From: Lachnospiraceae bacterium
GTDB taxonomy: Bacteria; Bacillota; Clostridia; Lachnospirales; Lachnospiraceae
Length of the DNA stretch: 64,000 nt
NCBI GenBank assembly: GCA_017460885.1
Contig: JAFUAB010000001.1
Span: forward strand, 1 to 64,000
Reading direction: 5' to 3'
Part shown: positions 21,129-25,286 of the stretch, one piece after another
Numbering within the stretch: position 1 is the first letter of the stretch
Layout: each line of letters opens with the position of its first letter
Translations under genes and position numbers: made by a program
Notes under the pieces: model-generated
The model's database searches: none
What the model saw: only the letters and a program-made list of their open reading frames with translations
What the model was told of the DNA's origin: nothing

Positions 21129-21183
21129 CTTGACGAGAGTAAAGTAAATGAGTATAATCAGAATATACTTTACTATCGTCAAG
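21129..21183 (+). promoter_or_regulatory. Promoter wrapped in an 18-bp inverted-repeat operator
   Basis: CTTGACGAGAGTAAAGTA (21129-21146) and TACTTTACTATCGTCAAG (21166-21183) are inverted repeats matching at 17 of 18 positions. The left arm contains a -35 TTGACG (21130-21135), and the -10 TATAAT (21153-21158) lies in the 19-bp spacer, 17 bp downstream. Binding to both arms would cover the whole promoter, as in self-repressed toxin-antitoxin operons. The presumed ligand is the HTH protein of the downstream gene pair. Confidence 0.8.
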
Positions 21184-21192
21184 TTAACGTGG

Positions 21193-21250
21193 CGCAGGAG
21201 TGGCTGAAATGCGGAAGTTAAGTCAGTGCGACGCAGGAGTGGCTGAAATG
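21193..21250 (+). repeat. Direct repeat duplicating a ribosome site and start codon
   Basis: CGCAGGAGTGGCTGAAATG occurs at 21193-21211 and again at 21232-21250, offset by 39 nt (13 codons). Each copy contains GGAG and an ATG 8 nt later, in the same frame, so the kinase gene has two near-identical start contexts. Confidence 0.85.
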
Positions 21251-22066
21251 AGGGATATATGCCATGAATTGAAAGATATGCGGTATTTAAACTGGGCTAA
21301 GACCAAGCATTCATCAGGAACAGCCGGGTCTTTTTTGAAATCATACGATGATACCGGATATATTAAAAAATATTACAAGCTTTCGGACTATGCGCCGGGC
21401 AAAGGGATAGTGGGTCACGAGTGTATCAATGAAATAATCGTACAGAGATTATTGGGATTATTGGGTATCGAACATCTGGAATACAGGCTTATTCATGCTA
21501 TTGTAACGATTGATGATGAAGAGCATGAGACCTGGCTGTGTGAGTCTGATGACTATAAGAATAAAGGTGAATCAAAACTGGCACTAGAAGATTTTTATGC
21601 TGCGTACAGAGTATCAGATGAAACACCTTTTGACTTTTGTGTACGAATGGGGTGGGGAGATATTATCTGCGATATGCTGGTATTGGATTATCTGATCCTT
21701 AATCGTGACAGGCACGGAGCCAACATCGAGGTCCTTCGGGACAGAAAAAGCAGAAAAAACAGACTGTCGCCTCTTTTTGACCACGGCCTGAGCTTGATGT
21801 GCCGGTGCCGTACCGAAGAAGATATTCTGAATTTCAATGTTATGGAAGATAAAAGGGTTCAATCTTTTATAGGTACAAACAGTGCGCTCGAGAATCTGAC
21901 GATCGTACCCAGGGATCATATCAGGAATTTGATAAATTCACATAAAATGACAGATAAAACCGAAGATGTTCTGTTGACGGGAATATCCGAGATCATGTCG
22001 GAAGCGTTCTGTCATAAAATCTGGGAAATGATATCCGGGAGGTGGAACTTCCTTGGCAGTATTTGA
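21209..22066 (+). CDS. HipA-like kinase-domain protein
   Basis: 285 aa from ATG 21209 (GGAG 8 nt upstream); ATG 21248 has a duplicated, equally good site. The catalytic core looks like HipA/PI4K-type kinases: LILNRDRHGAN gives the D-R-H-x-x-N loop (D170 and N175 counted from GTG 21200), and LFDHGLS supplies the metal-binding Asp (D194), like DFG. It is shorter than HipA (~440 aa) and lacks the HipA N-terminal subdomain. It overlaps the next gene by 14 nt. Role as toxin or regulatory kinase is inferred. Base composition is more AT-rich than neighbours, suggesting transfer. Confidence 0.72.
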   Translation: MRKLSQCDAGVAEMRDICHELKDMRYLNWAKTKHSSGTAGSFLKSYDDTGYIKKYYKLSDYAPGKGIVGHECINEIIVQRLLGLLGIEHLEYRLIHAIVTIDDEEHETWLCESDDYKNKGESKLALEDFYAAYRVSDETPFDFCVRMGWGDIICDMLVLDYLILNRDRHGANIEVLRDRKSRKNRLSPLFDHGLSLMCRCRTEEDILNFNVMEDKRVQSFIGTNSALENLTIVPRDHIRNLINSHKMTDKTEDVLLTGISEIMSEAFCHKIWEMISGRWNFLGSI

Positions 22067-22877
22067 AATAAGAGATGCAGCCGAAAAGACCGGTGATGAA
22101 GACTTTCTGACAGGTTTTTTGTTCTATTATGAAAAATCACGCCGGTTTTATGTTGAGCTTCTAAGTGAAAATGATGAGTGGTCCGCTCCGTTTATTTTTG
22201 CCAGAGGCGTTTCAAAAGGAATATTCAGCTTCGGACCGCCCTTGGCAGACAGTTTTGTCCGCCAAAGGATCATTCCGCATGACAGGCAGAATCTTGGCAG
22301 CATATTAAAGGTTAACAAACTTCGGGAATACGATGAATACAGATTGCTGCTGTTAAGTGAAGGAAGATGTTCGCAGGATGATCTTTATCTGAAAAAGACG
22401 GATACAGAACTGCTGCCAGAGGAAATATTACAGCGCCTTGGGCGTAAGGTGAAGGATGTAATCCCTATGGAAGGGCATAAACTGACGGTTTTCTTTAATG
22501 ACAAAACAGTCAGACTGTGTCATCTTGATGAATTGGTAAAGGGTAGAAGAGAGTTTGATAAAATTCTCTCAGACAGTGAGATATTTATGGCTGTCAAACT
22601 GTCACCCGGCGGAAACGGCATTGAATGGGGCACTGAAAGGATTCTATCTGCCGAAGAATTGCGTGAAAATGGCGCACCGACCGAGATCAGTTATGAGAGT
22701 CTGCTTTCATTTGTAAAATACAGACTTGCAGATACGACAGAGACTGCGGCATTAATAGACTGCAGCAGACAGTATATCGGACAATTGGTCAGGGAAGAGA
22801 GGCTTCATTCGGTAAGGGAAGGCTCGAACAACAACCTGTTTTTGAAGAGTGAGATTGAAGCTTCGTTCAGGGGATGA
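22053..22877 (+). CDS. DUF2442/HTH partner of the HipA-like kinase
   Basis: 274 aa, starting at TTG 22053 behind GGGAGGTGG (7-nt spacer), overlapping the kinase by 14 nt. Residues 1-~130 are an unassigned region. About 140-210 resembles DUF2442 (VFFNDKTVRLCHLDELVKG..IEWGTERILSAEEL). The last ~45 residues form an excisionase/MerR-like helix-turn-helix (ETAALIDCSRQYIGQLVREE). It is not a HipB/XRE antitoxin. It most likely binds the inverted repeat at 21129-21183 and may inhibit or be a substrate of the kinase; both are inferences. Confidence 0.6.
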   Translation: MAVFEIRDAAEKTGDEDFLTGFLFYYEKSRRFYVELLSENDEWSAPFIFARGVSKGIFSFGPPLADSFVRQRIIPHDRQNLGSILKVNKLREYDEYRLLLLSEGRCSQDDLYLKKTDTELLPEEILQRLGRKVKDVIPMEGHKLTVFFNDKTVRLCHLDELVKGRREFDKILSDSEIFMAVKLSPGGNGIEWGTERILSAEELRENGAPTEISYESLLSFVKYRLADTTETAALIDCSRQYIGQLVREERLHSVREGSNNNLFLKSEIEASFRG

Positions 22878-22986: not shown

Positions 22987-23029
22987 AGGAACTGTAGCGA
23001 AATGACTAAGTAATTCTGCTACAGTTCCT
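22987..23029. repeat. Hairpin AGGAACTGTAGC / GCTACAGTTCCT
   Basis: A perfect 12-bp stem (22987-22998 with 23018-23029) encloses 19 nt. The word AGGAACTGT or its complement also appears at 131-139 and just after the ABC exporter stop near 53439-53447, always intergenic, which suggests a dispersed element. Confidence 0.65.
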
Positions 23030-23141
23030 AATGTGTATTGGAGATATCGACTCTGACAGGTCCTTTTCTGATAATGAGGATGAATTTGATCAGAGATGTC
23101 GTATAAGTTGAGGTTTCCGGAGCCGGATCATTTCTAAATAA

Positions 23142-23238
23142 ATCCCCAGTTGCATAGTGCTGAAATCCCCAAAATAAGGGCTTTTGCTTAGCACGGAACT
23201 CGCATAATCACTGGGATCAACACTATGCAAATAGGGAT
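23142..23238. repeat. 97-bp element with 18-bp terminal inverted repeats
   Basis: ATCCCCAGTTGCATAGTG (23142-23159) and CACTATGCAAATAGGGAT (23221-23238) match at 16 of 18 positions. The size and ends look MITE-like. It lies just upstream of a broken Rpn-type transposase. Confidence 0.6.
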
Positions 23239-23318
23239 TCTGCCATAATTCTGCTCATCCGATTGACAATCACCACTGCTTGATTTATTGTAAAACCAAC
23301 AGATACAAGGAGTTTTGC

Positions 23319-23985
23319 ATGCGCAAAGAGACTGCACAAAGCATCATCGCAGCCGGCGAGATCGGAGCCAAATACGATAGTGTCGCCAAGAATCTGTGGC
23401 ATGTATCCTATGATCAAGAGGGGCATATATTACGCGGCCCGGGAGATAAGCTCGCAGCTTAACTACGTTACGGAGCAAACCAACTATAGTGACGTATCGA
23501 AGGTCATAAGCATCTGGATCATCAATGACGATTCAATTTCGCTGGATCTCCAGAATACGGCCACAAGGTATTACTTCACAAAGGAAGACTTCATCGGAGT
23601 TACTGATGAACCGAGGGAGGATTATGACCTGCTTGAAGTGATCATGATCCGCCGCGGTGAACGTAAAGAGATAACGGACACGATATTTAAATATCTGCAG
23701 AGCGTATATGAAGCAAACCTGAAAGAAATAGACAAGTATACTCCGGCAAGTTCTAATCCGGAGATTGTTAAGGAGGTGGAATCCATGCCCAGTATGAGCC
23801 AGGTAATCTATAATAGAGGACTAACAGAAGGAATATCTCAGGGAATATCTCAAGGCAGAGAAGAGGGGCAAAACCAGCTTATTGAGGCATTTAACCGCCT
23901 ACAAAAAGGAGAGAGCCGCGAAGACATCATCAAATCGGGGATTGATGAGCATACGGTTGATCTGGCTATGACCCTTCGCAAATGA
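23319..23985 (+). pseudogene. Rpn/PD-(D/E)XK-family transposase, internally deleted
   Basis: The start (ATG 23319, AAGGA upstream) encodes MRKETAQSIIAAGEIGAKYD.., the usual N-terminus of Lachnospiraceae Rpn-family recombination-promoting nucleases. After ~25 residues the family sequence stops and resumes in another frame at KRGIYYAAREISSQL (about 23413 on), which normally lies ~80-100 residues later, so the PD-(D/E)XK core is lost. The C-terminal part, including the Gln/Gly-rich GISQGISQGREEG tail, stays open to 23985. Deletion plus frame change make it a remnant. Confidence 0.75.
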
Positions 23986-24371: not shown

Positions 24372-24509
24372 TCCACCATTCCCCGAAAATGGATTAAAAT
24401 AACCGTCCCCGTGATCCAGCGCGCCGCAGGAACCGTCTCCGGTACATCTGTGCATATTTGCAATAATGTGATAGAATGAAAGATATATTTACCAATGGGA
24501 GAGGTTCAT

Positions 24510-25286
24510 ATGAATCAGCAGGAACGAAGGATATGGCTTATAGACTATCTGAGGAACGAATCACCCGATCTGGCGGATGTCGGTATTCCGGGAGATGAGT
24601 CTGCCCAGAAGGATCTTTTGCGTGCGCTTATGAATGTGAGGCCGCCCAAGGCGATCAGCGATGAATTCCTGCAGATCCAGGACACGTATCTGACATCGGA
24701 AGCCGAAGCGGCAGGGATCGTGAACATCAGTGACCTTACTCATTTCGGCAGGGACAAAAGACTGTATCTCTGGCAGGGAGATATCACCACTCTCAGATGC
24801 GATGCCATCGTGAATGCAGCCAATCCTCAGATGAGGGGCTGCTTTATTCCTTTGCATAAATGCATCGACAACTGCATTCATTCCAAAAGCGGAATCCAGC
24901 TCAGACTCAAGATGGACGAGCTGATGCGCAGGCAGGGTCATGACGAACCTGTGGGAAGCGCCAAGATCTCCCCGGCTTATAATCTGCCCTGCGAATATGT
25001 GATACATGTGGCAGGGCCTATTGTATATGATGAGCTTGAGGATGAGCATATAGAGCAGCTTACCACCTGTTACAGAACCTGTATGGAGGTGGCTGAGCTA
25101 TATAATCTGACCAGCATAGCATTTTGCTGTATATCCACAGGTGAATATCATTTTCCGAGGGATGAGGCTGCCCGGATAGCGACCGATACGGTCAGGAAAT
25201 ATCTGAATGAACATTCTTCGGACATCAAGGTTATCTTTAACGTTTTTTCGGATGAAGATCTGGAGCTCTATACCCATCTGCTCTGA
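24510..25286 (+). CDS. Zinc-type macrodomain protein-ADP-ribose hydrolase
   Basis: 258 aa. An N-terminal helical region (~1-85) precedes a macrodomain with IVNAANPQMRGCFIPLHKC, where C111, H116 and C118 are the zinc ligands of the Zn-Macro subclass, followed by CIDNCIH. These enzymes remove ADP-ribose from proteins and are often encoded with SirTM, GcvH-L and LplA; none is adjacent. I chose ATG 24510, 5 nt after GGAGAGG. It lies at the edge of the accessory region, followed by the fumarase genes 15 nt later. Confidence 0.88.
   Translation: MNQQERRIWLIDYLRNESPDLADVGIPGDESAQKDLLRALMNVRPPKAISDEFLQIQDTYLTSEAEAAGIVNISDLTHFGRDKRLYLWQGDITTLRCDAIVNAANPQMRGCFIPLHKCIDNCIHSKSGIQLRLKMDELMRRQGHDEPVGSAKISPAYNLPCEYVIHVAGPIVYDELEDEHIEQLTTCYRTCMEVAELYNLTSIAFCCISTGEYHFPRDEAARIATDTVRKYLNEHSSDIKVIFNVFSDEDLELYTHLL

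What the first reader, a model, noticed from the sequence alone, without database searches (positions are those of the whole stretch)
21129..22877. HipA-like kinase plus DUF2442-HTH protein: a possible new TA-like or defence module
Two coupled genes sit behind a promoter fully covered by an 18-bp inverted repeat. The kinase keeps the D-R-H-x-x-N and D-H-G residues but lacks the HipA N-terminal domain. The partner is not HipB/XRE but an N-terminal unknown domain, DUF2442 and an excisionase-like HTH. Local sequence is AT-rich and lies in an accessory region with repeats and a broken transposase.
Basis: partly seen in the sequence, partly recalled or inferred. Interest (0 to 1): 0.75.

Follow-up and report, generated by a model that had tools for sequence, protein, structure and literature searches.

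The report
Kinase toxin with fused antitoxin-repressor
Two overlapping genes in a gut-type bacterium look like a poison-and-antidote pair in which one protein probably both silences a HipA-like kinase and switches off their shared promoter, a layout seen in scattered Clostridia that I did not find described in the papers I could search.

Summary
21248-22066 encodes a 272-aa HipA-like kinase core; 22053-22877 encodes a 274-aa partner overlapping it by 14 nt. In a 299-genome same-family sample 30 genomes carry such a kinase, and 30 of 30 have the partner directly downstream. The promoter repeat is two copies of a palindromic operator (YTTGACGnnCGTCAAR), present in 61 of 63 relatives against 7 of 790 other genes, and not found (0 of 8) where the partner lacks its DUF2442-HTH part. 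Five relatives have lost or degraded the kinase but keep a full-length partner; the reverse was not seen. No neighbour gene is conserved in the loci examined. Both proteins weakly match PADLOC's candidate defence system PDC-M03, and the kinase groups with HipI-type rather than HipA/HipT kinases. The partner's N-terminal domain is probably related to the HipS antitoxin domain, but only through an intermediate profile; the direct comparison fails. Best reading: a HipS-type toxin-antitoxin module whose antitoxin once gained a DUF2442-HTH repressor. New variant of a known kind.

The parts
21129..21144 (.). operator copy 1, CTTGACGAGAGTAAAG, overlapping the -35 box TTGACG (21130-21135)
   Evidence: 14 of 16 to YTTGACGnnCGTCAAR; 61 of 63 relatives have at least one site of 13 or more; one of two such sites in the only pair in the own genome
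21153..21158 (+). -10 box TATAAT, 17-bp spacer from TTGACG
   Evidence: read from the sequence; promoter function inferred
21168..21183 (.). operator copy 2, CTTTACTATCGTCAAG, between the -10 box and the gene
   Evidence: 14 of 16 to the consensus
   Evidence: 25-nt arms, 88% complementary, 13 nt apart
21178..21255 (+). 39-bp tandem duplication carrying RBS and ATG twice (alternative kinase start 21209)
   Evidence: not seen upstream of the kinase in the two closest relatives L004 and L005
21248..22066 (+). HipA-like kinase core, 272 aa, probable toxin
   Evidence: HipA_C E 3.2e-5; PDC-M03A E 3.2e-11; catalytic residues invariant in 25; 100/99 support with HipI-type kinases against HipA/HipT
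22053..22877 (+). partner, 274 aa, TTG start, probable bifunctional antitoxin and repressor
   Evidence: always next to the kinase in 30 of 30 genomes
22053..22406 (+). partner N-terminal domain (residues 1-118), probably HipS-like, with the invariant P75-x-x-R78-Q79-N80 loop
   Evidence: PDC-M03B match at residues 71-111; profile match to PDC-M03B N-domain 96% over 41 columns, none to Couple_hipA directly; stands alone as the partner in 8 HTH-less loci
22449..22670 (+). DUF2442 region (residues 133-206)
   Evidence: PF10387 E 0.0012 in the window protein, best 4.3e-9 among 25 relatives
22734..22865 (+). excisionase/MerR-like HTH (residues 228-271)
   Evidence: HTH_17 E 0.016, best 7.3e-8 in relatives; excisionase PHROG 4691 E 7.9e-10

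Best explanation
A two-gene toxin-antitoxin module. The first gene makes a HipA-like Ser/Thr kinase core without the HipA N-terminal lid; when free it would phosphorylate an essential host protein (by analogy an aminoacyl-tRNA synthetase) and stop growth. The second gene makes a fused antitoxin and repressor: its N-terminal, probably HipS-like domain sits on the kinase near the Gly-rich loop and blocks it, while DUF2442 and the HTH bind two palindromic operators that cover the -35 box and the stretch after the -10 box and repress the operon. Overlapping genes couple their translation. Loss or displacement of the partner would free the kinase and derepress the promoter together. Shown: pairing, overlap, catalytic residues, operator conservation, co-occurrence of operator and HTH, loss of kinase with retention of partner. 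Inferred: toxicity, neutralisation by the N-domain, DNA binding, target, trigger.
For: Pair conserved: 30 of 299 same-family genomes have a kinase match of 105 bits or more and 30 of 30 have the partner directly downstream (26 full-length partners, 4 short; one kinase, G262, is broken by a stop). 72 of 80 genome-collection loci show the kinase ORF overlapping the partner by 8-38 nt. Operator: 61 of 63 loci reach 13 of 16, dinucleotide shuffles 1.7%, other genes 7 of 790; 25 of 25 in the first homologue set, which overlaps the other. 0 of 8 loci whose partner is the N-domain alone, and 0 of 2 HIRAN-type loci, reach 13 (Fisher p 4e-9 and 9e-11, not corrected for relatedness). HTH-bearing kinases form one clade (97/88) inside the short-partner kinases, so the repressor part looks gained once. 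Kinase lost or degraded with a 268-272-aa partner kept in L074, L089, L127, L131, L133; 0 kinases without partner. 25 of 25 kinases match PDC-M03A at E 0.001 or better and 23 of 25 partners match a PDC-M03B model at E 1 or better, best 2.2e-5. Neighbours: of 702 neighbour ORFs in 50 loci the commonest family, an ABC transporter, occurs in 8.
Against: No experiment. The N-domain has no direct profile match to the HipA/HipS domain (0.2%; joint profiles 0.4-6.3%), only a two-step chain of 96% and then 89%. DUF2442 and HTH are below Pfam cut-offs in the window's own protein. The operator class (C or T at the ends) follows the tree and is not better predicted by HTH columns than by others (top 20 columns: 9 N-domain, 7 DUF2442, 4 HTH), so that test gave no support for direct contact. 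The HTH-less loci are also more distant kinases, so their lack of operator is confounded with ancestry. Three partner-only genomes include fragments, so partner loss also occurs. L127 and L131 are near-identical and count as one event.
Confidence: 0.75

Rival explanations
1. The same module, but selected as an anti-phage abortive-infection system (a PDC-M03 relative): a phage event displaces or destroys the partner, the kinase shuts the cell down.
For: Weak matches of both proteins to PDC-M03A/B, a candidate, not validated, system. The analogous HipA-like kinase + DUF3037 pair (PDC-M66, DS-6/HipAD) was reported to defend, with the kinase needed and loss of the partner toxic (passages of PMC12548924 and PMC13092281). 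Patchy occurrence.
Against: No defence assay. PADLOC scan of 146 neighbours in 25 loci gave scattered hits (94 families at 1e-10, the best-represented in 4 members) and no background set was run, so a defence-island link is undecided. The window's flanks show no recognised defence genes among the five proteins scanned.
Confidence: 0.35
2. A signalling pair, not a toxin: the kinase phosphorylates the partner (or the partner's HTH) and thereby relieves repression of the operon and perhaps other targets; no poisoning is involved.
For: Operator and HTH conserved together; kinases regulating repressors are a known theme (recalled).
Against: In the own genome only the module's promoter carries a pair of sites, so there is no evident regulon; the kinase family is that of known growth-inhibiting kinases; a kinase without partner was not seen (30 of 30) whereas partners without kinase were.
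Confidence: 0.15
3. A classical hipBA or hipBST operon seen in a diverged form.
For: HipA_C similarity.
Against: Gene order is reversed, there is no HipB/XRE protein, the kinase separates from 22 HipA and 3 HipT sequences with 100/99 support, and true hipB-hipS-hipT operons occur separately in the same family (L187-L189).
Confidence: 0.05

Closest known systems
hipIN (HipI kinase + HipN = HipS-like + HIRAN); PADLOC PDC-M03 appears to be this type
   Same: Short kinase core first, partner downstream with a HipS-like N-terminal domain; weak profile matches of both proteins; kinase tree groups them (100/99).
   Different: HIRAN domain is replaced by DUF2442 + HTH; the paired palindromic operator is not found upstream of the two HIRAN-type loci examined. 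That PDC-M03B equals HipN is my reading of L164/L165 and the description in PMC8262856.
hipJS (HipJ kinase + HipS)
   Same: Kinase first, small HipS-type antitoxin second, as in the 8 HTH-less relatives.
   Different: The window's antitoxin carries an added DUF2442-HTH repressor part; HipJ sequences themselves were not available to compare.
hipBST
   Same: Functions of HipS (kinase blocker) and HipB (DNA-binding autoregulator) are both needed; HipT also lacks the lid.
   Different: Here the two functions appear fused in one protein with a different DNA-binding domain, and the toxin gene comes first. hipBST is present separately in the family.
hipMP (HipM + HipP with gamma-delta-resolvase similarity)
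   Same: Kinase first, putative DNA-binding antitoxin second.
PDC-M66 / DS-6 / HipAD (HipA-like kinase + DUF3037/DUF1829)
   Same: Two genes, HipA-like kinase with a non-HipB antitoxin.
   Different: Partner domains differ; 1 of 25 kinases matched PDC-M66A (E 4e-4).
dhiTA (DUF4160 toxin / DUF2442 antitoxin)
   Same: DUF2442 in an antitoxin that lowers its own promoter's activity (passages of PMC8198452).
   Different: Unrelated toxin; no HipS-like domain or HTH mentioned.

Membership tests
HipA-like kinase superfamily | Gly-rich loop, catalytic N-x-D-R-H and Mg-binding D-x-G motifs | tested here: met
   Invariant in 25 homologues; HipA_C 25 of 25 at E 1 or better, best 3.2e-5; window score 24.1 below the 30.5 cut-off
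hipBA | HipB (XRE-type) antitoxin gene next to a kinase with N-subdomain 1 | tested here: not met
   Partner has no XRE match; kinase has no Couple_hipA domain; no Couple_hipA match in the own genome
hipBST | three genes in the order HTH protein, HipS, HipT | tested here: not met
   Two genes, kinase first; kinase outside HipT clade
hipIN / PDC-M03 | partner with HipS-like plus HIRAN domain | tested here: not met
   No HIRAN match in the partner or 25 relatives; DUF2442 and HTH instead
hipIN / PDC-M03 | HipI-type kinase core | tested here: met
   PDC-M03A E 3.2e-11; 100/99 grouping with two HIRAN-type kinases, on long branches
HipS-like antitoxin | homology of the N-domain to HipS / HipA N-subdomain 1 | tested here: inconclusive
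   Partner vs PDC-M03B N-domain 96%, PDC-M03B N-domain vs Couple_hipA 89%; partner vs Couple_hipA 0.2%
Type II toxin-antitoxin module | toxin inhibits growth and antitoxin relieves it | not testable with these tools
   needs expression tests
Type II toxin-antitoxin module | autoregulation through an operator at the promoter | tested here: inconclusive
   Conserved operator in 61 of 63 loci and its co-occurrence with the HTH; binding not shown
Anti-phage defence system | protection against phage | not testable with these tools
   needs phage assays; neighbour scan without background is undecided

The most novel reading that the evidence does not exclude
A distinct, Clostridia-wide Hip kinase family with its own gene organisation (kinase first, then a HipS-like-DUF2442-HTH protein), in which one protein is both kinase plug and operon repressor, so that a single invader-triggered displacement at once frees the toxin and induces more of it, serving abortive infection.
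Probability: 0.25. Interest if true: 0.78.

Novelty: new variant of a known kind. Interest (0 to 1): 0.6.

Why it matters
In hipBST the kinase blocker (HipS) and the DNA-binding autoregulator (HipB) are separate proteins. Here evolution seems to have joined the two jobs in one protein by adding an unrelated DNA-binding part to a HipS-type antitoxin, once, together with the appearance of a paired operator. Relatives with the short antitoxin, and relatives that lost the kinase, are ready-made natural comparisons for how toxin-antitoxin modules acquire transcriptional control. It also gives DUF2442, known from dhiTA antitoxins, a second toxin partner class.

Tried and rejected
Considered and rejected: chance ORFs (homologues and pairing); plain hipBA or hipBST; a single 50-bp hairpin as regulatory RNA (the arms are two operators; RNA folding was not run); a conserved functional neighbour; a mainly phage- or plasmid-borne system (partner: no match in 50,697 phage records; kinase: one partial 27.8% match; both genes in 1 of 72,556 plasmid records, P. 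xylanivorans pNP95; 2 viral-contig loci from pattern scans; an earlier single-sequence scan gave one weak partial match, L053).

Led nowhere: direct and joint profile comparison of the N-domain with Couple_hipA; residue-operator covariation (not enriched in the HTH); PADLOC neighbour scan (no background set). The solved-structure search gave CtkA for the kinase (E 1.1e-5) and only insignificant hits for the partner (best NE0471, E 0.16).

Rows dropped before counts: in the operator count 9 of 72 kinase loci (no start called or under 150 bp upstream). Of the 8 of 80 loci without a kinase ORF: L064 and L104 are contig edges, L111 has a truncated partner, the other five are discussed. Seven of 57 loci dropped in the neighbour clustering, and 4 of 150 listed neighbour ORFs left out of A3 (three near-repeats in L067, one very long ORF in L073); some of the 146 ORFs are probably spurious. 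L225, L229, L230, L233 and L236 had no recognisable kinase beside them and were left out of the operator-HTH table. L222 has a broken kinase without a proper start, so its upstream stretch is uncertain.

Full report
What is there. The window holds two co-directional genes. Kinase: ATG 21248 to stop 22066, 272 aa; partner: TTG 22053 to stop 22877, 274 aa; they overlap by 14 nt. A 39-bp tandem duplication just upstream repeats the ribosome-binding site and ATG, giving an alternative in-frame start at 21209; it is not seen in the two closest relatives, so 21248 is taken as the start. Module GC is 42.4% against 50.3% for the window.

The kinase. Pfam sees only HipA_C, below cut-off (E 3.8e-5), but 25 of 25 homologues match it at E 1 or better, and the loop S22-S-G-T-A-G27, K44, N152-R-D-R-H-G-A-N159 and D178-H-G180 are invariant. 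It has no HipA N-terminal domain. A tree of 61 kinases puts the 26 with HTH-type partners in one group (97/88), the 8 with short partners around them, and two HIRAN-partner (HipI-type) kinases beside these with 100/99 support, apart from 22 HipA and 3 HipT kinases from the same family (midpoint root, some long branches).

The partner. It has an N-terminal domain (residues 1-118) unknown to Pfam, a DUF2442 region and an excisionase/MerR-like HTH. PADLOC's PDC-M03B, from a candidate defence system, matches the N-domain at residues 71-111 (E 0.0019; 23 of 25 relatives at E 1 or better, best 2.2e-5), and PDC-M03A matches the kinase (E 3.2e-11; 25 of 25 at 0.001 or better). Two full PDC-M03B proteins fetched here have a further C-terminal region (L164, L165), which I read as the HIRAN domain of HipN described in PMC8262856 (results section read). 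Profile comparison links our N-domain to the PDC-M03B N-domain (96%, 41 columns) and that domain to Couple_hipA (89%, 82 columns); controls (reversed profile, DUF2442 and HTH parts) gave under 2%. The direct comparison gives 0.2%, and joint profiles at most 6.3%. Relation to HipS is therefore probable, not shown. If right, the invariant P75-x-x-R78-Q79-N80 loop lies about where HipS carries the tryptophan that plugs HipT (Trp65; passages of PMC10627512); that placement is my inference from the register.

Conservation. In 299 same-family genomes 30 have a kinase match of 105 bits or more (weaker hits are other HipA-type kinases), and all 30 have the partner directly downstream: 26 full-length, 4 the N-domain alone; one of these kinases, in G262, is broken. 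Three genomes have a partner or its remains without a kinase. A related genome of the same genus lacks it (G041). The genome-collection scan found 314 relatives of the partner, of which the best 80 were kept, from Lachnospiraceae, Oscillospiraceae/Ruminococcaceae and other Clostridia, with single loci labelled Erysipelotrichaceae and Synergistaceae. In 72 of 80 the kinase ORF overlaps the partner by 8-38 nt.

The operator. Upstream of the kinase, 61 of 63 usable loci reach 13 of 16 (44 reach 14), against 1.7% of dinucleotide shuffles and 7 of 790 other genes in the same loci (the consensus came from the same family, and -35 boxes contribute part of the match). Of the 63, 27 had two sites and 34 one by the 200-nt count. 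The own genome has 9 palindromic places within two mismatches, fewer than the 15 of the reversed control pattern, and the two at this promoter are the only pair. None of 8 loci whose partner lacks DUF2442-HTH, and neither of two HIRAN-type loci, reaches 13 (best 10-12); a distant HTH-type locus, L228, has 13. With the tree, this suggests one gain of the repressor part and operator together. Relatedness is not corrected for, and a finer test, whether HTH residues predict the operator variant, gave nothing beyond ancestry.

Loss pattern. Five loci keep a 268-272-aa partner but not a working kinase: L074 (kinase absent, partner directly behind two operators of 14 of 16), L127 and L131 (near-identical; most of the kinase deleted, operator of 14 kept), L089 (only the start region left, site of 12 of 16), L133 (kinase degraded, no site within 260 nt of the partner). 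Kinases without partner were not met in the kinase-led search (0 of 30). This asymmetry fits a toxin and antitoxin, though five loci in four events at most is modest.

Context. Neighbour ORFs share little: in 50 loci and 702 ORFs the commonest family, an ABC transporter, appears in 8 loci at varying places; 146 near neighbours from 25 loci hit 137 Pfam families, none in more than 3 members. A PADLOC scan of them gave scattered hits, without a background set, so a defence-island link is undecided. The pair occurs on one plasmid, Pseudobutyrivibrio xylanivorans pNP95, annotated hypothetical; it is nearly absent from phage records.

Reading. The best account is a HipS-type toxin-antitoxin module whose antitoxin is fused to its own repressor. 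Toxicity, neutralisation, DNA binding, target and trigger are inferred. Closest described systems are hipIN and hipJS (same order, HipS-type partner, no DUF2442-HTH), hipBST (same functions in separate proteins) and the HipA+DUF3037 defence pair PDC-M66/DS-6/HipAD (passages of PMC12548924 and PMC13092281). DUF2442 has antitoxin precedent in dhiTA, where antitoxins lowered promoter activity (passages of PMC8198452). No paper found describes this architecture; supplements could not be opened, and HipP of hipMP is known to me only by its description.

Noticed in passing
window 22987-23036: A hairpin repeat dispersed in the genome: 27 further matches at E 0.001 or better in the own genome (some are the two strands of one place), several as opposite-facing pairs about 125 bp apart, MITE-like.
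   Followed up: partly
window 23141-23163 and 23217-23239: Inverted repeat, 23-nt arms, 87% complementary, 53 nt apart, between the module and the PDDEXK_2-like remnant.
   Followed up: no
window 23380-23985: ORF with a weak match to PDDEXK_2 nuclease-type transposases (E 0.0041), possibly a remnant.
   Followed up: no
window 24495-25286: Macro-domain protein matching protein-ADP-ribose hydrolase NF003163 (E 8e-100, above its cut-off).
   Followed up: no
L187, L188, L189: Complete hipB-hipS-hipT-like operons in the same bacterial family.
   Followed up: partly
L238 47-3342: Antitoxin-type partner at the edge of a viral contig beside genes that look like phage terminase subunits (by eye, not scanned).
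   Followed up: no
L231 1149-2322 and L232 938-2108: Deeply diverged kinase + short HipS-type-like pairs (P-x-T-R-E-N instead of P-x-x-R-Q-N) in other Clostridia families.
   Followed up: partly
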